A DNA stretch of 32,194 nt. Source: Bacillota bacterium. GTDB lineage: Bacteria; Bacillota; Clostridia; Clostridiales; Clostridiaceae. Below are positions 13,471 through 28,365 of the stretch, one piece after another. Every line of letters begins with the position of its first letter. The stretch's first letter is position 1. Below the pieces are notes generated by a model, which made no database searches, was not told the DNA's origin, and saw nothing but the letters and a program-made list of their open reading frames with translations. The translations under genes and the position numbers were made by a program. The stretch lies in NCBI GenBank assembly GCA_021781655.1, contig JAJXWJ010000038.1, positions 1-32,194 of the forward strand, read 5' to 3'.

Positions 13471-16395
13471 TTAATTAAAAATTAGACTATTAAATTTATC
13501 TAAATCTATATTACCTGTTACACCGCTTACAGATCCAGTATCAGTATACTGCCAGCTCACACTAGGATATTGAGGAGGCTGTGCTCCATAACTTGCTATC
13601 CAAGTAGGAACATTGAAATTGCTGTCTGCAAGATAATCATTATAGAAATTTAAACCTGAGTAAATACCTATCTTATATCCTCTTGCTTGAACATAGTTTA
13701 TAAACTCTCTAGTGAATGAAGCAGCTTGCTGCTTATTCCAATCACCTTCATTTTCAATGTCTAACCAAAGTACAGTATCTGAGTGTAATCCACTTATAGC
13801 ATTTAAAAAGTGTTGTGCTTGTCCATCTGGATTATTATCATTATCTGCATAATGATAGAAACCAACTAAGAAACCATTACTTGCCAAATTAGTTGCTCTA
13901 TAATTTAGTAAGCTATCAACATAGGTTTCACCTTGAGTTGCTTTTTGAATTACAACTTGTACACCAGATGCTTTAAACTGCTGATAATTTGATATATTAT
14001 CTCCTTCATAAACATCTGCGCCTTGATATATTGATAAATTACCAACAACTATTAACAAACTTTGACTTACAGATAATCCTGAATTTCCAACAGCTGTTAC
14101 AGTTAATCTATGTGCTCCAGCTGATAAACCTGAAACATTTAAACTGTAGTTAAATCCGCTATTAGATATATTGTATGCAGGGAATACATTTTGAACATCA
14201 GGTCTTGCTATACCTAAAGTAGCTTGTCCAACATTTTGACCATCTACAAGTACATCAACTTCTTTCATTCCCTTTACATCTAACGCCCATCCAGCTACAG
14301 AAATTGTACCATTTACATTTTGTAAATCTGTAGGTGTATCGATGTTCATCATATCTGCTGGTCTATTGATAGTTCTGCTTTGTGAAGTAACTGTTCCATC
14401 ATTTCCAATAGCATTAACTGTTATTGTATGAGCTCCTCCAGAAAGGCTTGATAAATCTAAATTATAGTTGTATCCGCTAGATGAATTGTTGTAGGCTGGG
14501 AATACATTAGCAACATCTGGTCTTGCTATACCAATTGTTGCAGTTCCAACTTTATTTCCATCTACAAGTACATCAACTTCTTTTGTACCAGTAACATTTA
14601 ATGCCCATCCTGCAACTGTAACAGAATTTCCTACATTTTGATTATTGCTTGGATAATCAATACACATAATATTACTTGGTCTATTAATAGTTCTACTTTG
14701 AGATGTTACTGAACCATCATTTCCAATAGCATTAACTGTTATTGTATGGGTTCCACCACTTAAATTTGATGTATCTACTGTGTAGTTGTAACCGCTAGAT
14801 GAATTGTTGTATACAGAGAAAACTCTAGCCACATCTGGTCTTGCTATACCAATTGTTGCAGTTCCAACCTTTTGGTTATCCACAAGCACATCAACTTCTT
14901 TTATTCCAGCAACATTTAATGCCCATCCTGCTACTGTAACAGAATTTCCTGCATTTTGATTATTGCTTGGATAGTCAACACACATAATATTATCTGGTCT
15001 TGTTACTGTGGTGCTTTGAGTATTTGTTGTACCATCATTTCCGATAACCTGAATGGTTATTGTATGAGTTCCTCCACCTATAAGAGAAGTGCTCAAGTTA
15101 TAATGGTAACCGCTATTACTATCATTATAGTTTGGAAAAACTCTTTGTACATCTGGTCTTGAATCTCCTATTGTAGCTGTTCCAACCTGATTATTATCTA
15201 CTAAAACATTAATTTGTTTAACTCCAGAAGAATTTAATGCCCACCCAACTACTGGTATAGTTGGACTATTTCCATTAATTATGCCTCTTGGAGTATCTAT
15301 GCATGACATAGCTGGCAAACCCTTTTGAAATTGTACTGATTTAGTATCTGTATCTCCATTTGCAGCTGTATATGTTATAGTAAGAGTATGCTTTGCATTT
15401 GATAATGCTCCAATATTTAGTGTTGTTGAGTAACCACTAGTCCCACTATTACTGTAATTTGGAAATACTTTCGCAACATCTGGTCTTGGCTGATTTATAG
15501 TTGCAGCGGTTGATGCACCACCATCAATACTAACATTTACGCTAGTAATTGCAGATGAATCCATTGCCCATCCTGATACATTCAAGCTTTGTCCGTATAC
15601 AACATTTGATTGTGGAAAATCAATACAATCGATCAATCCAGCAATATTTATTTGTCTAGTTAAAGTTATATTGCTTCCATCATTACCAGTACAAACTAAT
15701 GTAATAGTATGACTTCCACTTTTAAGTCCATTTGTATCTAAAGAGTAGCTGTATCCGCTAGTATCAGCACCTGCATAACCTTGATATACATTTTGTACAT
15801 CTGGCCTTGCTATTCCTAACTGTGCTTGTCCTTTTAAATTTCCGTCAACATAAACATTTACTGACTTCATTCCTGAAGGATTTACTGCCCATCCTTGCAC
15901 CGAAATTGGACTATTATAATAAGTTGCTCCATTTGGAACAGTATCTATAACTCCCATTGGTACTTCACTATAAGTGGAAAAATTTCTATTTAAATAAACT
16001 GTATTCCCACTATTATCAATTGTTTCAACTGTAAGCTGATGATTACCAGAAGACAATGCTGAAACATCAAGGGAGTATGAATATCCACTGTTTGTTGCAT
16101 TTGAATAACTAGTATATACATGAGCTACATCTGGTCTAGCCTCACCTATAGTTGCATTTCCAACCACCTTGTTATCTACTAGTATTTCAACTTGTTTGAC
16201 ACCTGCATCACTTAACGCCCATCCTGCAACATTGAGTTTTGCTTGTGAAATTGCGGTACTGTAATTTACAGTTGGTGTATCTATACACTCAATTGTAGGA
16301 TTTGCAGCATGAGCAATAACACCTTGAGCTAATAAAGCATCCCCCATAGTAAACAGTAGTGTTATTGCAATAATCTTAATCTTCTTATTAATCAT
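13471..16395 (-). CDS. Secreted GH25 (Chalaropsis-type) lysozyme with seven Ig-like repeats
   Basis: A 974-residue exported muramidase. A signal peptide (MINKKIKIIAITLLFTMGD, cleavage after AHA) is followed by seven repeats of about 105 residues, each with GWAL, a VDxxLVD strand, ARPDV, an SGY turn and a closing HTITV strand with GNDG; these look like bacterial Ig-like wall- or sugar-binding modules. The last 190 residues are the GH25 domain, from YQGADVYEGDNISNYQ through LWLDIENEG (catalytic Asp/Glu) to SVSWQYTDTG and NIDLDKF. It cleaves the MurNAc-GlcNAc bond of peptidoglycan outside the cell. Repeats 5 and 6 are nearly identical. The ATG follows AAGGTAGGT. A DUF4309 lipoprotein gene lies 53 bp upstream. 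Confidence 0.93.
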   Translation of the reverse strand: MINKKIKIIAITLLFTMGDALLAQGVIAHAANPTIECIDTPTVNYSTAISQAKLNVAGWALSDAGVKQVEILVDNKVVGNATIGEARPDVAHVYTSYSNATNSGYSYSLDVSALSSGNHQLTVETIDNSGNTVYLNRNFSTYSEVPMGVIDTVPNGATYYNSPISVQGWAVNPSGMKSVNVYVDGNLKGQAQLGIARPDVQNVYQGYAGADTSGYSYSLDTNGLKSGSHTITLVCTGNDGSNITLTRQINIAGLIDCIDFPQSNVVYGQSLNVSGWAMDSSAITSVNVSIDGGASTAATINQPRPDVAKVFPNYSNSGTSGYSTTLNIGALSNAKHTLTITYTAANGDTDTKSVQFQKGLPAMSCIDTPRGIINGNSPTIPVVGWALNSSGVKQINVLVDNNQVGTATIGDSRPDVQRVFPNYNDSNSGYHYNLSTSLIGGGTHTITIQVIGNDGTTNTQSTTVTRPDNIMCVDYPSNNQNAGNSVTVAGWALNVAGIKEVDVLVDNQKVGTATIGIARPDVARVFSVYNNSSSGYNYTVDTSNLSGGTHTITVNAIGNDGSVTSQSRTINRPSNIMCIDYPSNNQNVGNSVTVAGWALNVTGTKEVDVLVDGNKVGTATIGIARPDVANVFPAYNNSSSGYNYNLDLSSLSGGAHTITVNAIGNDGTVTSQSRTINRPADMMNIDTPTDLQNVNGTISVAGWALDVKGMKEVDVLVDGQNVGQATLGIARPDVQNVFPAYNISNSGFNYSLNVSGLSAGAHRLTVTAVGNSGLSVSQSLLIVVGNLSIYQGADVYEGDNISNYQQFKASGVQVVIQKATQGETYVDSLLNYRATNLASNGFLVGFYHYADNDNNPDGQAQHFLNAISGLHSDTVLWLDIENEGDWNKQQAASFTREFINYVQARGYKIGIYSGLNFYNDYLADSNFNVPTWIASYGAQPPQYPSVSWQYTDTGSVSGVTGNIDLDKFNSLIFN

Positions 16396-17942: not shown

Positions 17943-20090
17943 ATGAATTTTCCAGTATGGATAGATTAAAACCATTAGTAAAACCAGCATCTATGTTAGG
18001 GTCAAGCGTATTTACATTCCAGTATGGATAGATTAAAACTGTTCCAATGCCTACAAGATTGCCAGAGTTTTTTAAATTTACATTCCAGTATGGATAGATT
18101 AAAACCATAACAGTTTCAACAACAGTTCCAAATCCTACGATAATTTACATTCCAGTATGGATAGATTAAAACTATAGGCAATATTTACGATAATCCAGAG
18201 TTATTAGGATTTACATTCCAGTATGGATAGATTAAAACTTGATTTATGTCTATTTTTTTTATACACTATTCAAAAATTTACATTCCAGTATGGATAGATT
18301 AAAACATCCATTTTCCATGCGTTTGCACCTTGGTTAATGTTATTTACATTCCAGTATGGATAGATTAAAACTTATCTCCTAACTGCGAAATAATCTGAGC
18401 AGTCATTATTTACATTCCAGTATGGATAGATTAAAACTCTTGCTCTATCTTTAAATTATTCTGTAGTTCTCTAATTTACATTCCAGTATGGATAGATTAA
18501 AACTATCATCAAACAACTTTTCTTCTTCTTTTTCTTCGTTATTTACATTCCAGTATGGATAGATTAAAACTACAATATAAGAAAAATACATAATTATGAT
18601 TAATAAATTTACATTCCAGTATGGATAGATTAAAACCACTTCATCATCTAACATATAACTTCTTATTCCAGTATTTACATTCCAGTATGGATAGATTAAA
18701 ACGTAAATTTCTATCTCTAAAAACAGCTGTGCAAGTTGTATTTACATTCCAGTATGGATAGATTAAAACTCAAAACCTTTATTAAAATTAGGTTCAAGGG
18801 GTTTAGATTTACATTCCAGTATGGATAGATTAAAACAATTGCTAAACAGGGAAAATCATAATAACAGACAAATTTACATTCCAGTATGGATAGATTAAAA
18901 CTTGATTTTGGTTTGTCAACCCTGTTGAATTTTCTTTTATTTACATTCCAGTATGGATAGATTAAAACAACTTGATGAAAGAATTAAACATCATAGGGAA
19001 CTACATTTACATTCCAGTATGGATAGATTAAAACTATACGATATGTGGAATAACATGTTTAATAATTCTATATTTACATTCCAGTATGGATAGATTAAAA
19101 CTGATTTTGCGATACGAAGAAGAGTTAAGAAAATTAGATTTACATTCCAGTATGGATAGATTAAAACGAATTGGAGGTTATATTTTTATGATTGAAATTG
19201 TTAATTTACATTCCAGTATGGATAGATTAAAACAATAATAGTATGTTGTAATAAATTTAAAAACTCTTAAATTTACATTCCAGTATGGATAGATTAAAAC
19301 CAGCGACACCGCACAATACCTAGTTAATCGTGTATTATTTACATTCCAGTATGGATAGATTAAAACCAAATTCTTTAAGTTTTACATCTCTTGGGTCTGC
19401 TTCATTTACATTCCAGTATGGATAGATTAAAACAAGCAGCGAGCTTGCCTAGAACTAATCTATTCCCTATTTACATTCCAGTATGGATAGATTAAAACCC
19501 TTGCTGTATTTTTCTACGCTGTATTTTTCTACAATATTTACATTCCAGTATGGATAGATTAAAACATAATCTTCTTCTTTGAAATATAATATAGCTTTAT
19601 CATTTACATTCCAGTATGGATAGATTAAAACGATATTTATTTAGGAGCAGATAGTCAAGATTATCAGATTTACATTCCAGTATGGATAGATTAAAACCAT
19701 TGAAACATATACATTTTCAGAAGCTTTAGAATTATTTACATTCCAGTATGGATAGATTAAAACCATTCCAAGTTCTGTAAACACACTCATAGCACTTCAT
19801 TTACATTCCAGTATGGATAGATTAAAACTAGCAGTTATTTTTCTAGTAAATGATTTTTATGTAATTTACATTCCAGTATGGATAGATTAAAACTTATGTA
19901 AATGATAGCTCTCTAAAAATTTATTTAAAATTTACATTCCAGTATGGATAGATTAAAACTACAAATACAGGCTACCGTTCAGCAGCTACAAATACATTTA
20001 CATTCCAGTATGGATAGATTAAAACTATGGTATAATAAGTACATAAGATAAGTTAAAGAAATTTACATTCCAGTATGGATAGATTAAAAC
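17943..20090 (-). CRISPR. Type I-B CRISPR array, 33 repeats of 30 bp and 32 spacers
   Basis: Thirty-three repeats start at 17943, 18010, 18076, 18143 and so on to 20061, separated by spacers of 35-37 bp. Read on the minus strand each repeat begins GTTTTAATCTATCCATAC and ends GGAATGTAAAT; the last eight bases ATGTAAAT form the usual I-B crRNA 5' handle, as in Clostridioides difficile. Repeats 2-33 look identical. The repeat at 17943-17972 differs at four positions in its handle end, marking the leader-distal end. The array is therefore transcribed leftward from the leader at 20091-20278, so the newest spacers are on the right. I saw no duplicate spacers. Confidence 0.99.
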
Positions 20091-20572: not shown

Positions 20573-21565
20573 CTACCACCATATTTTAAAACCTTCATAC
20601 TCCTTTTCAGCCATTAAATGTTTTATTAATTTATAACACTCTAGCCTTATTAAATGTTGGTATGTCACATCTTTTGATAACTCTTTATGATAAATTGTTG
20701 TTTTTAACATTTCATCAAACTTCATTGATATTGTTCTAGATGCATCTTTAGTTAAATGAAGATAATTTAATTCTTTTGTAAAACAGCTAGGTGTTATTTG
20801 ATTTCTATTTAACAATGAAAAAATTAACCTATCTCCCAAAATTGGTTTAAATACTTCAGCTAAATCTAAACTTAATGAAAATCTCCTTAATCCAGGTTCA
20901 TGTAAATAACTGATGGTAGGGTTAATTTGAGTTCTATATATTTCTCCAAGTACTCTCGTATACACTAGTCCGTTAACAAATGAAATCATAGTATTAATCA
21001 TATTGTCGGGAGGATTTTTTACTCTCTTTTCAAAATCTATTTTTTGATCAACAATGATATTCCACGCTGAATAATATTGTTTTCTAATATTACCTTCCAC
21101 GCCCATTAGTTCATTAATACTCTCTGTTTTTAAAATCTTTTTTCTAAGAGATTCAATTTCTATCATTGCTTTTTCAACATCTTTACCTCTACCGTTATAG
21201 TATCTTAGATTTCGATAAATATTAGCAGCTGCAGCGTCTATAAACTTTTGTGCTAAACAAATTCTTTTTTGTTGATCTTCGTAATGTCTAACTTGTCTTA
21301 CTAGCAAATTGCCTGCAAGTAAAGCCTCCTTTGGGTAAAAGCTGCCCGTGTAAAAACTATAATAATTAAAAAAATGTATAGGTATTTGATATTTTGATGC
21401 AAAATTTATAAACTTTGTATTAAATGTCATTTCGGACATGATATATAAATCTTCAACTTGCTCTATAGGAATATCTCTTGTTTCATTATCACTATTTGTA
21501 AATTGTAGTGTATTGTCTTTCCTATGCATCTCTCCATTATTATATATATAATAGCTCCGTTTCAA
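20573..21565 (-). CDS. cas1: CRISPR adaptation integrase Cas1 (type I-B)
   Basis: A 330-residue metal-dependent integrase that inserts new spacers at the leader end with Cas2. The N-terminal beta domain (YIYNNGEMHRKDNTLQF) is followed by the helical catalytic domain with the Glu in NELMGVEGNIRKQYYSAW, the His in ISYLHEPGLRRFSLSLDLAE and the following acidic residues. I use the TTG at 21565-21563 because GGGAGGAG lies 5 nt upstream and the protein then begins at the family's usual position. It follows cas4 by 18 bp. Confidence 0.96.
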   Translation of the reverse strand: MKRSYYIYNNGEMHRKDNTLQFTNSDNETRDIPIEQVEDLYIMSEMTFNTKFINFASKYQIPIHFFNYYSFYTGSFYPKEALLAGNLLVRQVRHYEDQQKRICLAQKFIDAAAANIYRNLRYYNGRGKDVEKAMIEIESLRKKILKTESINELMGVEGNIRKQYYSAWNIIVDQKIDFEKRVKNPPDNMINTMISFVNGLVYTRVLGEIYRTQINPTISYLHEPGLRRFSLSLDLAEVFKPILGDRLIFSLLNRNQITPSCFTKELNYLHLTKDASRTISMKFDEMLKTTIYHKELSKDVTYQHLIRLECYKLIKHLMAEKEYEGFKIWW

Positions 21566-21583: not shown

Positions 21584-22078
21584 TTAAATATAACACAATT
21601 CAAAATATGCACAACTCTTGCAAATCTTCCTTTTTTCAAGTAGTGGCGGTAAGGATGCATTTACAATTTCTTTTAAATCTATTAAGGATGATTCTATATA
21701 CTTTTCATCTTTATCTGTTAATTCTATATCAATACTTTGCTTTAGAAGAGGATAATCAACTTTACCCTTAATTCCTTCTACTCCCTTATGTTTTAGATAG
21801 TATAAATAATATTTTACCTGAATTATTCCAGCTTCCTCTATTTTTTTACTCTTTTTAACTTCATGCAACATACACTTACTTTTTATATAGTCAATATTAA
21901 TTACATCGTCTATATTAATATGTTTCTCTTCTCTTTTATAAACATTTTCATCAAGAACCTTTCCTATTTTTACATTTTCATTGTCTCCTTCCATTTGTAT
22001 CTGATTGTAAAAGTACCATAATTTTCTCTTGCAAACAATGTAATAATATATCATCATACCGCTAATTGGCTTATCCAT
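21584..22078 (-). CDS. cas4: CRISPR adaptation nuclease Cas4 (RecB-like, Fe-S)
   Basis: A 164-residue RecB-family nuclease that trims prespacers and helps select PAM and orientation. Four cysteines, C16 (VCKRKLW) and C153, C156 and C162 (CKSCAYFELC), are placed to bind a 4Fe-4S cluster. The nuclease core includes a GKVLDENVY region, IKGKVDYPL (Asp) and the QVKYYLYYLKHKG motif (as IIQVKYYLYYL). The ATG at 22078 follows GGGAGGTGTTGTT; an ATG at 22093 lies inside that ribosome site and would overlap the cas3 stop codon. Confidence 0.95.
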   Translation of the reverse strand: MDKPISGMMIYYYIVCKRKLWYFYNQIQMEGDNENVKIGKVLDENVYKREEKHINIDDVINIDYIKSKCMLHEVKKSKKIEEAGIIQVKYYLYYLKHKGVEGIKGKVDYPLLKQSIDIELTDKDEKYIESSLIDLKEIVNASLPPLLEKRKICKSCAYFELCYI

Positions 22079-22092
22079 AACAACACCTCCCA

Positions 22093-24318
22093 TTACAAAA
22101 AATTATCAAAGTTTTCTTCTATTCCATTTATTTCTTTGGATGTTAATCTTATAAATCCCCATTCTTCATACTGACAATTTACAACATTTATAAATTCATT
22201 TCTACTTATTTGAATCTTCTTAATAATTGCATCTGTTCCTTTAAAATAAATATCATATCTACCTACTGGTACAGTATACTTTTTAATTTCTTCTTTTAAC
22301 TTTATTTTTTCTAATTTTACTTTTTCCAACTCTTTTTTACCCAAATTTCGATTTGCAACCTCTAATAGTTTTCTAGATCTTTCATCTATTTTATCTTTAT
22401 GTTTTTGGTAAATTTCATTTGGTATTACATCATAGGATATGATGTTTCTTAAATTTACATCTCTTTTATCCATACTGTAAGGCTCTAAGTCTTCTATCCA
22501 CTTTAAAAATCTACGATAATTTCTTAAATAATCACTGCCTTCTAAATTTTGTGTTGTTAAATATTTATTTATAATATTTAATTTGTCACTTTCTGTTAAT
22601 AATCCTTTTACATCTTTTATTGCTTCTTTTGATAATTCATATATTTTTTTATCAATAAATCCCTTATTCCCATTTGTTAAAAGATTATTATCTATGTTTA
22701 AAAATACAAAACAATTTGGTTCTGCTATAGATTTTATTCCCTTTCTGTTACACCTTCCAAGTCTTTGAAATAAGCCACTAATATCTGAAAGTTCTGTAAA
22801 CAAATAATCAAAATCGATATCTAAACTTGCCTCTACAATTTGCGTAGATATCCATATACACTGCCCACTATTTTCCGTTTTTCCAAACTCTAATATTTCA
22901 TTTTCCTTTGCTGCTCTGTCACATTTTATAAATTTACTATGCAATATATTTATATTTGATATTCCTTTTTCTAAAAGTTCCTTGTATATTTGTTGCGCTT
23001 TTTTAACCGTATTACAAACTACAAGTATTTTATTACTAATACCTTTTTCACTATTTTCTTGAAATTTATTGTATATACTATCAGTGTCCATATGGCTATT
23101 ATAAACCTTCACATTATGCCTTTTTATATCATTTATAAATGTTTTTTCTTCAAACTCAATTGAATTTTCTCCCGTTTTTAACAGATCCTTTATAAATGGA
23201 GCTAAAGTTGCTGTCAAAATTGCAATCTTTCCTCCAAATTTATTTACTGTTTTAATACCATAAACCAAATATGCAAGTAAATCTGATCCATACATTTGAA
23301 TTTCATCAATGACTATTTTTGAATAGGACAAAGTAGCAAGTTTAAGTTCATATCCTTGGTATTTAAAAACAAAGTCAAATAATTGATCTAATGTTGAAAT
23401 GCTAAGAGGTATAGAAAGTTGTTTACTCTGATTGTAATAATCCATAATATCCATTTCAATATTTTTATTGTTATTATAATAACTTAGTGCATCAGAATGA
23501 AGCAATGCTAATTTAGATTCAATATGGTTTTTATCTAAAATATCTTCTTTAACTCTTTCATATATGGAATTTATAGCTGTTTTTAAAGGCAATATGAAAA
23601 AGCCTTTATTATTGCCTATCCAATGAAGTCCTGCTTCCGTTTTCCCCATACCAGTTTGAGCAACAACTACAATGTTCTTATTTGTGTTTCCCTTGCAAAA
23701 CTGTTGAAGCTCATTCCAATTATAATTATTATTGTTACTTTTCCATTTCTTTAATAAATTATCAAGTCCACGATTTAAAAAATTATTTTCATATTCAATT
23801 GGAATTTCTCCACTTGAACTGTAGTCGCATTTGTGGAGAAAACCTTTTATTAAAATTGCATCCTCATTATCTTTTATTTTTTTTATATTACCAGGTGTAC
23901 TCATTTTAATAAAATTTACTTTAAAATCACTCAATAAGTTTTTTGTTAATTCTTTACATTCTTTATTTTGTATTGCTCTTAAACAATCACAATAGTCATG
24001 ATGATATAAAACTGCAAATGCTACCTTATAATAATCTTCTTTATTTTCAAATTCATTTTCATTTATAAAATACAGAGATAGCACGTTATGTGCCATCTCT
24101 GTATTTTCGTTAAACTTAGTATTATTTTCTATCCTTTTCTGAAATTCTCTGTTTGCTTTACCATAATCGTGATATTCACAAGCGATTTTGGTAAGCTCAT
24201 ATATATGCTGTTTTTTGATATAATTTAAACTTAGTAATACATCAAGATTTTCCAATAATTCATCTGTGTGCTGCCTTATAGTCTTGTTAGGTTTTGCTTT
24301 ATAAATAGATAAATCCAT
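22093..24318 (-). CDS. cas3: CRISPR interference helicase-nuclease Cas3 (HD plus DExD/H helicase)
   Basis: A 741-residue protein that unwinds and degrades target DNA after Cascade binding. The N-terminal HD nuclease has H17 and the H50-D51 pair (CEYHDYGKA) with further His at YHHDYC. The SF2 helicase has Walker A AQTGMGKTEAG (about 220-230), the DEAD-box variant VIDEIQ (336-341), TATLAP (motif III) and QIVEASLDIDFD and QRLGRCNRKG (motifs V and VI). The order HD then helicase is normal for type I-B. I start at ATG 24318, 6 nt after AGGGGTGTG; a GTG at 24327 overlaps the ribosome site. Its stop is next to the cas4 ribosome site, giving tight coupling. Confidence 0.96.
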   Translation of the reverse strand: MDLSIYKAKPNKTIRQHTDELLENLDVLLSLNYIKKQHIYELTKIACEYHDYGKANREFQKRIENNTKFNENTEMAHNVLSLYFINENEFENKEDYYKVAFAVLYHHDYCDCLRAIQNKECKELTKNLLSDFKVNFIKMSTPGNIKKIKDNEDAILIKGFLHKCDYSSSGEIPIEYENNFLNRGLDNLLKKWKSNNNNYNWNELQQFCKGNTNKNIVVVAQTGMGKTEAGLHWIGNNKGFFILPLKTAINSIYERVKEDILDKNHIESKLALLHSDALSYYNNNKNIEMDIMDYYNQSKQLSIPLSISTLDQLFDFVFKYQGYELKLATLSYSKIVIDEIQMYGSDLLAYLVYGIKTVNKFGGKIAILTATLAPFIKDLLKTGENSIEFEEKTFINDIKRHNVKVYNSHMDTDSIYNKFQENSEKGISNKILVVCNTVKKAQQIYKELLEKGISNINILHSKFIKCDRAAKENEILEFGKTENSGQCIWISTQIVEASLDIDFDYLFTELSDISGLFQRLGRCNRKGIKSIAEPNCFVFLNIDNNLLTNGNKGFIDKKIYELSKEAIKDVKGLLTESDKLNIINKYLTTQNLEGSDYLRNYRRFLKWIEDLEPYSMDKRDVNLRNIISYDVIPNEIYQKHKDKIDERSRKLLEVANRNLGKKELEKVKLEKIKLKEEIKKYTVPVGRYDIYFKGTDAIIKKIQISRNEFINVVNCQYEEWGFIRLTSKEINGIEENFDNFL

Positions 24319-24331
24319 ACTAATCACACCC

Positions 24332-25408
24332 CTAGTTAAAGTTAACTATATATGACTTTTCTTTACTTATATCAAAATAAAGATTATCACTTCCTACTTC
24401 CGCTGAATATAATGACGTGTACACAACTTTCTTTTTTTGAAAGATTCGTTTATTATCCTCAATCACATAATTTTTATTTATATAATACTTAGTTCCATTA
24501 GCTGATATTTTATCTCCCAACCTTAAATAAACAGATTCATTTTTTATAAGTTCATAGTCTATATAAGCAGAATATTCACTTGTTATGCCTTCTTCAATAC
24601 TATCTACAACATCTACAAAGCAAACCTCTTTAATATCTACAAAATCTTCACTTCTACCAATTGATTTTAAATTGTATATATTATCTTTAATATCAGTAAG
24701 AGTATCTTTATCGCTCCTTATGTGAAGGATTAATTCTACATTATTTAAAATTTCATAATATTTTAAAGATGTTGTAAGACTCGCAAATTTAGAATAGGGA
24801 ATTTCATACTCCTTATTTTTATAGTCTTTAAATCTATACTTAATTTTTTTTTCTAATTCCTTTATTTCTTTTTCTCTTTTGGAAATCATCTTAAATATAG
24901 TGGAATTTGACTCCCATTTTTTCTTTTTATCTGATAATGTTTTTTTACGTTTTTTTATAGCATCTAATACTTTATCAATTCTTTTCGATTTAAAATTAGC
25001 TAATTTTTTAGCTAATTCTTTTAATTCTCTATATTCTTCTAAAAGTTCTCTATCTATAACTCCTATTGCAATGTCTTTCCTAAAACTGCTTCCTTGAACT
25101 TTAGATTTAGCCACCTTGTCAAACGCAGTTGACAAAAGATTTTCATTTTTCATTTTTACCAAAATACCCCTATCATCTTCAGTAAACTTTAAAAAGCAGT
25201 GATCAATATACGTTTTTTTATGCATAGATTCATATTTTCCCTGAATGCTTACATCCATAGGGTGGTATGATCTATACCCGCATGCACTATGCAATGCTCC
25301 AATTATTGTTGAAAATGGTGGCAATGGATAGGTCATTTTATTATAAACAGTCTCTTCTTTTTTATAATTTGCACTGCTTTGCGTAAGTATAATTCTTAAA
25401 ATCTCCAT
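24332..25408 (-). CDS. cas5: Cascade subunit Cas5 (type I-B, Cas5t-like) with a coiled-coil insert
   Basis: A 358-residue RAMP protein that caps the crRNA 5' handle in Cascade. The N-terminus MEILRIILTQSSANYKKEET and YPLPPFSTIIGALHSACGY is the standard Cas5 opening with its glycine-rich turn. Typical Cas5 proteins are about 230-250 residues; the extra length here comes from a Lys/Glu-rich helical segment at about residues 118-200 (for example LKELAKKLANFKSKRI and SKREKEIKELEKKIK) that is predicted to form a coiled coil. The core resumes at YEIPYSKFASLTTSLKYYE. The ATG is 2 bp after the cas7 stop, and the ribosome site GAGGTG lies in the cas7 end. Confidence 0.92.
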   Translation of the reverse strand: MEILRIILTQSSANYKKEETVYNKMTYPLPPFSTIIGALHSACGYRSYHPMDVSIQGKYESMHKKTYIDHCFLKFTEDDRGILVKMKNENLLSTAFDKVAKSKVQGSSFRKDIAIGVIDRELLEEYRELKELAKKLANFKSKRIDKVLDAIKKRKKTLSDKKKKWESNSTIFKMISKREKEIKELEKKIKYRFKDYKNKEYEIPYSKFASLTTSLKYYEILNNVELILHIRSDKDTLTDIKDNIYNLKSIGRSEDFVDIKEVCFVDVVDSIEEGITSEYSAYIDYELIKNESVYLRLGDKISANGTKYYINKNYVIEDNKRIFQKKKVVYTSLYSAEVGSDNLYFDISKEKSYIVNFN

Positions 25409-25410
25409 AC

Positions 25411-26298
25411 TTACACCTCAAAATATGTGTTGATTTGCTTCCTTAAATCCTCAAAAAATTTAGTAACACTAATTAATGGTAATTCACTTTTAATTTCAAC
25501 TTCATTTTTGAAATTTCCACCTTCAAGCAATGCCACACTACAACCTTTTCCTATTCTATCTTTTAGGTCTTCTGTAATTAATAGCTTATCTTCTTTAACC
25601 TTTACCACGTTTTCAAAATAATGAGTTTTTCTATCAGTTAAGCCACCTACAACAAATAGTGGTTCAGCATTATCTAAGTTTCCTTTTACCACTAAATTAA
25701 GATTTTCAACTGCGTCTAATATAGCAATAACTCTATCTGCTTTTTCTTTAGCATCAGCTTCTGGTGTGTCAAAATTTTCGTCTTTACCTATCATATCAAG
25801 GTCAATGGTTAAGCTGTACATTTTCATAGTTTTATCAAATTCATATTGATAAGGCATAAGCCCACATTTCCCTGCATCAGCCTGTAAATTCAAATTGTTA
25901 TTTTTCGCATAGTTTGATGCTAAATGTAAATTATTATGAAATCTCGTTTCGTTTACAAAATCATCACAAGCAATTGCATCAGTTAAATAAAAAGAGCTCT
26001 TTCGAATATATGTATTTCCAATTGTATTCATGTAGCCACCCTCTAAGGCCCTACAATTTGTCGCATTAAGTTTATCAGAAACAACTTTTTGATTTACTTT
26101 TTTATCTACAACTGTTTGTAAATCATCATACATTCCACTTTGTACCATTATAGCGTTTTTAAGACTCTCTCTGCTTCTTGTTGCATAACTTTTACCATTT
26201 TTAAAAACCTTTTGAACACTTGAAATATTACCAAGACCTTCACCGTAATTAGATGTCATATTTGCAACAACTGTAAGTGTTAATGCTTTTTTATTCAT
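25411..26298 (-). CDS. cas7: Cascade backbone Cas7 (Cst2/DevR family)
   Basis: A 295-residue RAMP protein that forms the Cascade backbone along the crRNA spacer. MNKKALTLTVVANMTSNYGE followed by RSRESLKNAI, the NETRFHNNLHLAS segment and MYSLTIDLDMIG mark the Cst2/DevR branch used in type I-B (Tneap) loci. I use the ATG at 26298 because GGAGGAGAGAA lies just upstream; an ATG at 26313 precedes that ribosome site. The start lies inside the end of cas8b (8-bp overlap), so translation is coupled. Each Cascade needs several copies, in keeping with the strong ribosome site. Confidence 0.95.
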   Translation of the reverse strand: MNKKALTLTVVANMTSNYGEGLGNISSVQKVFKNGKSYATRSRESLKNAIMVQSGMYDDLQTVVDKKVNQKVVSDKLNATNCRALEGGYMNTIGNTYIRKSSFYLTDAIACDDFVNETRFHNNLHLASNYAKNNNLNLQADAGKCGLMPYQYEFDKTMKMYSLTIDLDMIGKDENFDTPEADAKEKADRVIAILDAVENLNLVVKGNLDNAEPLFVVGGLTDRKTHYFENVVKVKEDKLLITEDLKDRIGKGCSVALLEGGNFKNEVEIKSELPLISVTKFFEDLRKQINTYFEV

Positions 26299-26569
26299 TT
26301 TTCTCTCCTCCATTATCTTTATTTAGTGCATTTATAAACGTATAAGCTATATTTTTATTTCCTTCAAAATTCTCAAATAGATCATATGCAAAGTCAAAAA
26401 CAACTCCAGAATAGGAAGATAACTGTAATAGTATTTCACAGAACCTTTCATAATCTTTAAATGTTATTGCACTAATTAACTTCTGCTTGTAACTATCAAC
26501 TTTGTTTTCTGGAATTTCTGCCATTACTTTTTTAGCACTTTTATAAGCAGATTTCATTTGCTTGTCCAT
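26291..26569 (-). CDS. cas11b: Predicted internal product Cas11b (small subunit from within cas8b)
   Basis: Inside cas8b, codons TAT GGA GGG GAT AAA ATG place a GGAGGGG ribosome site 5 nt before the in-frame ATG at 26569-26567. The product would be 92 residues, starting MDKQMKSAYKSAKKVM, helical throughout, and ending with the cas8b stop. It is known that several type I systems, including I-B, make the Cascade small subunit by internal initiation near the 3' end of the large-subunit gene. The size and helical content fit that subunit. Expression is inferred, not shown. Confidence 0.75.
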   Translation of the reverse strand: MDKQMKSAYKSAKKVMAEIPENKVDSYKQKLISAITFKDYERFCEILLQLSSYSGVVFDFAYDLFENFEGNKNIAYTFINALNKDNGGEKNE

Positions 26570-27631
26570 TTTATCCCCTCCATAAATTAATATATTAATT
26601 CTTATAAGTGTCTTGATATTATATATATAATTTGATTTTGATTTTAATAGAATTTCTATTAATGCATCAAGTTTTATATTATTTAATATGTTATCAGTTA
26701 CTTCTTTTTCAAAATCCATATAATAATTGTCATTTACTTTATATTTCATCTTAATAGCTTTATAATTTTCAATTTGTGAGAAAATTATAATTGCAGCTTT
26801 CCTAATATATAATGTTTCAAAATAATCCTTATCCCTGTTCTTAATAATTACCTCAACATCAAAATCTATAAAATCAGCAGAATTTTTTAAATCACAAAAT
26901 AATGTACTTCTAGGATTATCACTATTACTAATTAAGTTATTCGTATTAAAAAGTTGCTTTATTGAATAGTTATTATTTATAAAAAATGCTTCATATGACT
27001 TTGAAAATGCAAATGGAATAAAATCAAATTCCTTCTCATCATCAAATTTATATGTTTTGAAATCCCAATTGTATGAAATTGATTTACTCTTTCTAGGAAT
27101 GTCTTCAATATAATAATTTTGTATTCTACAAATGTTATCCGGTTCTACCAATAAACTATTGGCATTTGCAAAATTGGAATACAAACTTTTTCCTGTCCTA
27201 TAGGTTTCTTTTATCAATACTAATCTATTTTCTTTAATTCTTTGTAATATGATTTCTTTATTTTCACCAGAAAATTTAAGATCTCCAAGAACCTTTTTTA
27301 TAATAGCAATATTAGCTTTTAATTTATCATTAACCAATTTTATTTGTTCATCAGTAAATTCACTATTTACTAATATTTGCTCTATTATCCTATGATGCAT
27401 AGCACCTTCAAAATAATATTCAACAAATAGCAAATATCGTTCCTCTGTAATAGATTCACTATTATATGATATTACATCATCATCAATATTATATAAGTTG
27501 GATTCAACTTCGTATCCCATAGCCACAAGATAATCAAAATATTTTATAAGACCTACTATGCTTGCACTATATCTCCAATCAGATGTTTCCATCGTAGTAT
27601 TGAATTTCCCATTTTCTATTTTGTTTTTCAT
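26291..27631 (-). CDS. cas8b: Cascade large subunit Cas8b (Cst1 family)
   Basis: A 446-residue protein that recognises the PAM and anchors target DNA. The N-terminus SDWRYSASIVGLIKYFDYL is characteristic of the Cst1/Cas8b1 group, which pairs with Cst2-type Cas7 as found here. Sequence in this family is poorly conserved, so the assignment rests on this opening plus gene order between cas6 and cas7. It overlaps the cas6 stop by ATGA and is preceded by AAGGAG. The last 92 codons begin with an in-frame ATG that has its own very strong ribosome site, predicting a separate Cas11b (see the internal feature). Confidence 0.92.
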   Translation of the reverse strand: MKNKIENGKFNTTMETSDWRYSASIVGLIKYFDYLVAMGYEVESNLYNIDDDVISYNSESITEERYLLFVEYYFEGAMHHRIIEQILVNSEFTDEQIKLVNDKLKANIAIIKKVLGDLKFSGENKEIILQRIKENRLVLIKETYRTGKSLYSNFANANSLLVEPDNICRIQNYYIEDIPRKSKSISYNWDFKTYKFDDEKEFDFIPFAFSKSYEAFFINNNYSIKQLFNTNNLISNSDNPRSTLFCDLKNSADFIDFDVEVIIKNRDKDYFETLYIRKAAIIIFSQIENYKAIKMKYKVNDNYYMDFEKEVTDNILNNIKLDALIEILLKSKSNYIYNIKTLIRINILIYGGDKMDKQMKSAYKSAKKVMAEIPENKVDSYKQKLISAITFKDYERFCEILLQLSSYSGVVFDFAYDLFENFEGNKNIAYTFINALNKDNGGEKNE

Positions 27632-28365
27632 ATGGTCTCCTTCCTGATTATTTCAATCAATCCAAAACCACTTGATTTACGACTTGCCACTCCACTTGTA
27701 TATAAATAATTTAGCAATGCTATATTACCCGTGAGCCTAAACATACCTAATGTCACCTCTATGAATTGTGAATGGTGTCTAACAACAGTTTTTTTACATT
27801 CTATTGGTATCATAGAAAAACCCTCTAAAATCGAAGTTGGTAGCGTATTAGAATTAGCTATTTGCGCTTCTAATACTTTATTAAACGCTTCATTAAAGCC
27901 TTCTTTTTCATAAGAATAATATATATCCTTGTTACTTTCTTTTATATGTTCTCTTACACACAAAGGAGATTTAAATATAACATCAATTGAACTTGTCGTA
28001 ATTGCAAATTCTTTTTCAATTAAAATATTTTTTACAATCATTGAATTTTCATATGCCAAAGGGTAACCTTTGTTTTTTTGCATCAGTAAAGCATTAAAAA
28101 ATACTATACCTGTTCCCATATCTCCTGTACTAAAAGTAATATCAATTTTTCTATTCTGAACTAATATCATCTTTTTTGTAAATGTACTACTTGGTATACC
28201 TACTGCAAATGTAAACGGTTTGTCTTTCCCTATTTCATAATAATTACTATAATGTTTACTATTCTCATATACAGTTAAACAATGTTTAAACAAACTAATT
28301 ATGGATGGTCTATAATCTAATGGTAACTGTGCATTTTTTAACTCCAAATCTATTTTTAATCTCAC
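27628..28365 (-). CDS. cas6: crRNA-processing endoribonuclease Cas6
   Basis: A 245-residue RAMP protein that cuts the array transcript within each repeat, leaving the ATGTAAAT 5' handle. The double ferredoxin fold opens with MRLKIDLELKNAQLPLDYRP, and the C-terminal glycine-rich motif SGVASRKSSGFGLIEI is diagnostic. Candidate catalytic histidines include the HH in VVRHHSQF. The start is GTG at 28365, preceded by GAAAGGAGAAAAAA. It is the first gene of the cas operon, and its stop overlaps the cas8b start. Confidence 0.95.
   Translation of the reverse strand: MRLKIDLELKNAQLPLDYRPSIISLFKHCLTVYENSKHYSNYYEIGKDKPFTFAVGIPSSTFTKKMILVQNRKIDITFSTGDMGTGIVFFNALLMQKNKGYPLAYENSMIVKNILIEKEFAITTSSIDVIFKSPLCVREHIKESNKDIYYSYEKEGFNEAFNKVLEAQIANSNTLPTSILEGFSMIPIECKKTVVRHHSQFIEVTLGMFRLTGNIALLNYLYTSGVASRKSSGFGLIEIIRKETI

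What the first reader, a model, noticed from the sequence alone, without database searches (positions are those of the whole stretch)
26291..26569. Internal translation start in cas8b predicts a separate Cas11b small subunit
The sequence shows GGAGGGG exactly 5 nt before an in-frame ATG at codon 355 of cas8b. This is a better ribosome site than most gene starts in the operon, and it lies inside coding sequence. The 92-residue product is helical and right-sized for a Cascade small subunit, which the operon otherwise lacks. Internal initiation of Cas11 is established for several type I subtypes; applying it to this gene is inference.
Basis: partly seen in the sequence, partly recalled or inferred. 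Interest (0 to 1): 0.7.

Follow-up and report, generated by a model that had tools for sequence, protein, structure and literature searches.

The report
Hidden small-subunit gene inside CRISPR cas8
The last 92 codons of this CRISPR large-subunit gene carry their own well-conserved ribosome-binding site and start codon, so the gene very probably also makes a separate small Cascade protein (Cas11), a known trick here seen in the little-studied Csx8 family.

Summary
One detail is wrong: the gene is a Cas8a1/Csx8-type large subunit (TIGR02670), not Cst1. In 65 intact csx8 genes (window plus 64 of 67 loci, down to 33% identity) every one has a start codon at this column (59 ATG, 5 TTG, 1 GTG) with a Shine-Dalgarno match before it (mean -9.7 kcal/mol; other columns average -1.8, next-best separate column -6.1). 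The signal exceeds what the encoded amino acids require (0 of 2000 synonymous redraws as strong). The three broken csx8 genes keep the site too. The pipeline finds one such column in type I-C Csd1, which is known to make Cas11 internally (30 of 30), and none shared by type I-E Cse1 (best 3 of 9). The product is predicted as a five-helix bundle beginning at the ATG; full-length Csx8 best matches type I-B Cas8. No separate small-subunit gene lies in the operon. A genome carrying the Acetobacterium woodii CRISPR repeat, a system proven functional, has the site. Internally translated Cas11 is established for types I-B, I-C and I-D: a new member of a known kind. Expression was not shown here.

The parts
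26291..27631 (-). cas8 large subunit, Cas8a1/Csx8 family (446 aa)
   Evidence: TIGR02670 E 4.4e-160; PADLOC Cas8b models of CAS-I-B E 1.4e-161 and Cas8a/Csx8 E 1.2e-160; AF2 model matches type I-B 8fcj_I, Z 10.7 over 345 residues
26575..26581 (-). internal Shine-Dalgarno GGAGGGG, 5 nt before the ATG
   Evidence: SD match at or below -5.5 kcal/mol before this column in 65 of 65 intact homologues
26567..26569 (-). internal start codon ATG (codon 355)
   Evidence: start codon (ATG/TTG/GTG) in 65 of 65 aligned homologues
26291..26569 (-). predicted internally translated small subunit Cas11 (92 aa)
   Evidence: AF2 five-helix bundle, pLDDT 91; helix 354-372 starts at M355 in the full-length model
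27628..28365 (-). cas6
   Evidence: TIGR01877
25411..26298 (-). cas7 (Cst2/DevR family); likely ATG at 26298, whose Shine-Dalgarno lies in the last csx8 codons
   Evidence: TIGR02585; SD -9.3 at 26298, 0.0 at the ORF-list start 26313
24332..25408 (-). cas5
   Evidence: TIGR02593 over cut-off; TIGR01895 below cut-off
22093..24327 (-). cas3 (ATG at 24318 has the better SD)
   Evidence: TIGR01587, TIGR01596 over cut-off
21584..22093 (-). cas4 (ATG at 22078 has the better SD)
   Evidence: TIGR00372 58.8 bits, below its cut-off of 65
20573..21565 (-). cas1
   Evidence: TIGR03641
20279..20557 (-). cas2
   Evidence: TIGR01573
17943..20100 (.). CRISPR array, 33 copies found of the 30-nt repeat ATTTACATTCCAGTATGGATAGATTAAAAC, the copy at 17943 degenerate (right end approximate: the last 3 copies were not printed)

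Best explanation
The csx8 (cas8) mRNA is translated twice. Ribosomes starting at 27631 make the full large subunit; ribosomes starting at the internal GGAGGGG-ATAAA-ATG (26569) make the free C-terminal helical domain, a 92-residue Cas11 small subunit. By analogy with solved type I-B and I-C Cascades, several Cas11 copies would line the belly of Cascade beside the identical C-terminal domain of Cas8 and hold the displaced non-target DNA strand during R-loop formation. Shown here: the site, its conservation, its selection at nucleotide level, the predicted domain boundary, the absence of another small-subunit gene in the operon. Inferred: that it is translated, and its role in Cascade.
For: Exact site. 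Start codon at this column in 65 of 65 intact genes, the six non-ATG codons being five TTG and one GTG. Mean SD energy -9.66 versus -1.77 over other columns, z -7.8; with 35 representatives under 60% identity -9.48, z -7.6; other in-frame ATGs reach -5.5 in only 28 of 452. Synonymous redraws of the seven upstream codons average -8.11 and reach the observed mean in 0 of 2000. Codon choice: GGC is 0 of 52 Gly codons at -4 (15% elsewhere); GGG 14 of 28 at -3 (15% elsewhere); GAG 11 of 18 Glu at -4/-3 (668 of 2650 elsewhere). mRNA less folded around the site than elsewhere in the same gene in 57 of 65. The SD core falls in all three codon frames (49, 11 and 5 of 65, motifs as searched). Three broken csx8 genes (L032, L075, L082) keep SD+ATG. 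Controls: Csd1 30 of 30, Cse1 best 3 of 9. Structure: pLDDT 91 bundle, helix 354-372 starts at M355; the full model's three best VIA rows are chains of type I-B Cascade entries, 8fcj_I (Z 10.7) and 8h67_L (7.3) over the whole length, 8ip0_J (6.6) over residues 11-313 only. Prior art: internal Cas11 in I-B, I-C, I-D (PMC11899642, PMC11096372, PMC7684278; passages read).
Against: No expression data. Foldseek gave no significant hit (best E 1.4 for the small model, 0.37 for the full one), and the VIA matches of the 92-aa model to chains of class 1 effector complexes (Z up to 6.4) are interleaved with unrelated helical proteins (Z 6.2, 6.0, 5.5) and below what a helical bundle can reach by chance. 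Amino acids alone explain much of the SD signal (redraw mean -8.11), since Gly-Gly is common there. PMC13199841 reports that the internal start of T. maritima cas8b1 made no Cas11 in E. coli, so such a site need not work in every host. Eight relatives have weak SDs (-5.6 to -6.9).
Confidence: 0.93

Rival explanations
1. Protein-level constraint only: a Gly-Gly-x-x-Met loop before the C-terminal domain is needed by Cas8, and the GGAGG is a by-product; no internal translation.
For: Gly at -4 in 26 of 35 and at -3 in 14 of 35 representatives under 60% identity; redrawing codons still leaves a mean of -8.11.
Against: Synonymous choice is biased to the SD (0 of 2000; codon counts); the loop sequence varies (KGVTIM, SLEVEM, KNMEDNM, YEKREGNM); where Met is replaced (6 of 65) it is by Leu-TTG or Val-GTG, which are start codons.
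Confidence: 0.04
2. The SD is a ribosome pause site that helps co-translational folding between the large-subunit body and the C-terminal helical domain, not an initiation site.
For: It lies at the predicted domain boundary.
Against: A pause needs no start codon at fixed spacing; the start codon is present in 65 of 65 and the spacing of the core is 4-11 nt, 7-10 nt in 55 of 65.
Confidence: 0.02
3. The small domain is made by proteolytic cleavage of Cas8 (as first proposed for short Cas8b fragments in C. thermocellum and M. maripaludis, according to PMC11899642, passage).
For: Would give a similar fragment; no tool result speaks for it.
Against: Does not explain conservation of SD, start codons and open mRNA.
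Confidence: 0.01

Closest known systems
Cas11b of Synechocystis sp. PCC 6714 type I-B (PMC11096372, passages read)
   Same: C-terminal portion of Cas8b, made from an internal ribosome-binding site; helical bundle; reported complex Cas8b1-Cas7b7-Cas5b1-Cas6b1-Cas11b3.
   Different: Its large subunit was first named Cmx8 (Myxan group), while this one is Csx8; there the complex was purified and solved, here the subunit is predicted.
Cas11b of Haloferax volcanii (PMC11899642, abstract and passages read)
   Same: Initiation at an internal Met of cas8b gives Cas11b, needed for effective interference.
   Different: Archaeal, with a potential SD of GGATG; shown by experiment there.
Cas11c of type I-C Cas8c/Csd1 (PMC7684278, passages read)
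   Same: Same gene-within-gene arrangement; the same pipeline finds one SD+start column in 30 of 30 Csd1 genes.
   Different: Subtype I-C, other Cas8 family; the column lies about 128 codons from the end instead of about 94 (medians).
Cst1/CXXC-CXXC Cas8b (TIGR01908)
   Same: L014, which matches TIGR01908, also matches the Csx8 model weakly (E 5e-8); of 23 loci found with it, 22 have an SD plus start 99-113 codons from the end.
   Different: Separate large-subunit family; the window protein does not match its model.

Membership tests
Cas8a1/Csx8 (TIGR02670) | Profile match over curated cut-off | tested here: met
   533.5 bits against 201.75
Cst1-type Cas8b (TIGR01908) | Profile match | tested here: not met
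   No match at E<=1 for the window protein
[quoted passage not shown]
Internally translated Cas11 of type I-B/C/D | Own ribosome-binding site and start codon, conserved beyond protein need | tested here: met
   controls
Internally translated Cas11 of type I-B/C/D | No separate small-subunit gene in the operon | tested here: met
   Window cas genes overlap or lie at most 18 nt apart; in 63 of 64 loci an ORF of 200 codons or more follows csx8, median gap -4 nt, largest 177 nt in L043. The rest of the genome was not searched for a small-subunit gene.
Internally translated Cas11 of type I-B/C/D | Small all-helical bundle | tested here: met
   By prediction: five helices, pLDDT 91.1
Internally translated Cas11 of type I-B/C/D | Fold match to solved small subunits or small-subunit-like domains | tested here: inconclusive
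   Csm-complex chains 9g9d_A (665-753) Z 6.4, 8bmw_B Z 6.4, four more Z 3.7-4.5; I-B CAST 8fcj_I (395-498) Z 5.0; low for helical bundles and interleaved with unrelated proteins
Internally translated Cas11 of type I-B/C/D | Protein is made and joins Cascade | not testable with these tools
   Needs proteomics, ribosome profiling or purification

The most novel reading that the evidence does not exclude
The free Cas11 of Csx8 systems has a role separate from full-length Cas8 (for example a Cascade-independent or regulatory one), so that selection keeps its start site even where the csx8 reading frame is broken upstream (L032, L075, L082).
Probability: 0.06. Interest if true: 0.55.

Novelty: new member of a known kind. 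Interest (0 to 1): 0.36.

Why it matters
A mechanical ORF list, and any annotation that gives one product per frame, misses this gene, so Csx8-type I-B systems look as if they lack a small subunit. Anyone moving such a system to another host, or into eukaryotic cells, would probably have to supply Cas11 as its own gene. The Acetobacterium woodii Csx8 system already works for interference and editing (PMC10328091), so the prediction can be tested there at once.

Tried and rejected
Considered and rejected: chance SD plus ATG; a constrained Gly-Gly loop alone; a pause site; proteolysis. The next-best separate SD-like columns in csx8 (residues 23-25, mean about -6) have almost no start codons (0 to 3%); they follow the conserved Trp-Arg, TGG AGA in the window, which makes an SD-like string by itself (my reading).

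Led nowhere: viral contigs (41 stretches matched a pattern, none a relative), plasmids (no match), sequence search of solved structures with the small-subunit and full-length profiles (2 and 1 hits at E 1.4 or worse), Foldseek on both models (no E<=0.001). McBride et al. 2020, the founding paper, is not held, so I could not see whether Csx8 was in its survey. Paper searches: 'csx8+cas8+small subunit' (0 papers); 'csx8' (17 papers; judged by title only two concern CRISPR, PMC10328091 and PMC6677821, read in passages); 'cas8a1+cas11+crispr' (3, not opened); 'cas11+clostridium+type i-b+internal' (8, four of them read in passages); two more on internal translation of Cas11. In what I read of these I saw no statement that Csx8 makes Cas11; subscription papers are not covered. 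PMC8473940 and PMC12669027 were read in passages and gave nothing on it.

Rows dropped: of 67 loci, 3 with broken csx8 frames (L032, L075, L082) were left out of the counts; L028 was first set aside (its match runs past its stop) and restored. Of 16 intact csx8 genes from the genome search, all with the site, 14 are the same DNA as one of the 64 loci, one is the window and one (L018) is extra and not in the counts. Cse1 control: 11 loci were tried; L126 runs off its locus, and on re-checking L122 turned out to be a neighbouring ORF wrongly taken by my script, so the first figure (3 of 10) was rerun as 3 of 9. Csd1: 30 loci fetched; 43 of 291 genomes had a match. In one search one of 23 loci (L152) is cut by its contig end and the script took the neighbouring ORF; this count is not column-aligned, and only L014 was tested against TIGR01908. 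For alignments A2 and A3 I gave 56 and 53 of the 65 sequences. In one search a start codon was looked for from 14 codons before to 11 after the aligned column; in 64 of 65 the best one sat on the column. The column scan covers 427 columns that hold a window residue and at least 70% of the sequences.

Full report
Observation. On the minus strand of the window the sequence GGAGGGG (26581-26575), then ATAAA, then ATG (26569-26567) lies in frame inside the ORF 26291..27631, at codon 355 of 446; translation from it gives 92 residues. The family name is not: the protein matches TIGR02670 (Cas8a1/Csx8) at 533.5 bits, and no Cst1 model at E<=1; PADLOC's type I-B Cas8b models and its Cas8a1/Csx8 model both match it. 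The operon is cas6-csx8-cas7-cas5-cas3-cas4-cas1-cas2, with an array of 33 copies of a 30-nt repeat beyond cas2. The same gene order is reported for the csx8 locus of Clostridium tetani (PMC6677821, passage read).

Strength of the site. By duplex energy with the 16S tail the internal site scores -9.8; the operon's own starts score cas6 -9.0, csx8 -9.4, cas7 -9.3, cas5 -9.4, cas3 -9.8, cas4 -14.0, cas1 -11.5, cas2 -9.3 (for cas7, cas3 and cas4 at the in-frame ATG with the better SD, the mechanically listed starts scoring 0.0). It is as good as a real gene start.

Conservation. A profile of 14 csx8 proteins found 67 loci in the genome collection, mostly clostridia by title, but also records titled Fusobacteriaceae, Veillonella and Eggerthia (class Erysipelotrichia), down to 33% identity in the best segment. 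With the window, 65 intact genes were aligned. The column of Met355 is a start codon in 65 of 65: 59 ATG, 5 TTG, 1 GTG; no other of the 427 columns examined exceeds 72%. The SD energy before it averages -9.66, against -1.77 (sd 1.02) over the other columns; 65 of 65 reach -5.5, whereas 28 of 452 other in-frame ATGs do. Thinning to 35 sequences under 60% identity changes little (-9.48, z -7.6). One gene (L059) has its best-scoring start 7 codons further on. The three loci with broken csx8 frames also keep SD plus ATG.

Beyond protein need. The residues before the Met vary: YGGDKM, KGGENM, KGVTIM, SLEVEM, YEKREGNM, KNMEDNM, SLEWGEDM, and in one gene (L019, the same DNA as L043) about 20 extra residues are aligned in between, yet the SD stays next to the start. 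Redrawing the seven upstream codons from the same gene's synonymous codons gives a mean of -8.11; none of 2000 redraws reaches -9.66 (35-sequence set: -7.92 against -9.48, 0 of 2000). Gene by gene the effect is modest (14 of 65 in the 10% tail). Hence much of the signal follows from the common Gly-Gly, and part is selection on the nucleotides. Gly codons there avoid GGC (0 of 52 at -4) and favour GGG at -3 (14 of 28, 15% elsewhere); Glu is GAG in 11 of 18 (668 of 2650 elsewhere). The 50 nt around the start are less folded than elsewhere in the same gene in 57 of 65, mean z 0.80.

Controls. The same method run on Csd1, the type I-C large subunit whose internal Cas11c is established (PMC7684278, passages), finds one column with SD and start in 30 of 30 genes, 128 codons (median) from the end, next best 20%. 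On Cse1, type I-E, where the small subunit is a separate gene (PMC13199841, passage), the best column has 3 of 9. On Csx8 (64 loci, threshold -6) it finds 91%, next best 6%. Of 23 loci found with L014, a protein that matches Cst1/CXXC-CXXC Cas8b (TIGR01908), 22 show an SD plus start 99-113 codons from the end (not column-aligned; the 23rd locus is cut by its contig end).

Structure. AlphaFold2 predicts the 92-residue product as five helices with mean pLDDT 91.1. In the full-length model (pLDDT 88.1) the helix 354-372 starts at Met355 after a short loop. The full-length model's best structural match by VIA-align is 8fcj_I of a type I-B CAST Cascade (Z 10.7, 345 residues, rmsd 4.8), then 8h67_L (7.3) and 8ip0_J (6.6, residues 11-313 only) of type I-B Cascade, with type I-C and Cas10d chains lower down. 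The small domain alone gave its two top VIA rows in Csm complexes (9g9d_A residues 665-753 and 8bmw_B, Z 6.4), with 8fcj_I residues 395-498 at Z 5.0 and four more Csm-complex chains at 3.7-4.5, but unrelated proteins stand between them (Z 6.2, 6.0, 5.5), values this low are no proof for helical bundles, and Foldseek itself gave nothing significant.

Link to a working system. Acetobacterium woodii has a Csx8-type I-B system shown to interfere and used for genome editing (PMC10328091, passages read). Its published repeat occurs 46 times without mismatch in genome G312, about 6 kb from the csx8 gene held as L018; that gene has GGGGGAGAAGTG-ATG 96 codons before its stop. So a system already shown to work very probably carries the site; that G312 is A. 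woodii or a close relative is inference.

Known or new. Internal translation of Cas11 from cas8 or cas10d is established for types I-B, I-C and I-D (PMC11899642, PMC11096372, PMC7684278, PMC10212523: abstracts or passages read), following McBride et al. 2020 (not held, known to me through those papers). My searches showed no paper on Cas11 in Csx8 systems (limits in Tried and rejected). A caution from PMC13199841 (abstract in the listing and passages): the internal start of T. maritima cas8b1 did not work in E. coli. The finding is therefore real and well supported, a new member of a known kind; that the protein is made and sits in Cascade is still inferred.

Noticed in passing
L032 5992-7344, L075 6001-7343, L082 5962-7445: csx8 reading frame broken in three relatives (Eubacterium MAG, C. 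sartagoforme AAU1, Parvimonas sp. oral taxon 393) while the internal Shine-Dalgarno and ATG are intact; sequencing error not excluded.
   Followed up: partly
L134-L156: Loci found with a Cst1/CXXC-CXXC-type Cas8b have a strong SD plus start 99-113 codons before the stop in 22 of 23, often with GTG.
   Followed up: partly
window 26291-26313: The last csx8 codons (Asn-Gly-Gly-Glu) double as the cas7 Shine-Dalgarno; csx8 and cas7 overlap by 8 nt if cas7 starts at 26298.
   Followed up: partly
window 17943-17972: The repeat copy at the cas2-distal end of the CRISPR array is degenerate (ATGAATTTTCC in place of ATTTACATTCC), as is common at the leader-distal end of arrays (recalled).
   Followed up: no
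window 13471-16395: 974-aa protein with Pfam Big_7 Ig-like repeats (7 stretches) and a C-terminal glycosyl hydrolase 25 domain, perhaps a secreted cell-wall lytic enzyme.
   Followed up: no
L085 4244-6067: Csx8 of a Clostridioides MAG is 608 aa from its first listed start, longer than any other in the set, but keeps the internal site.
   Followed up: no
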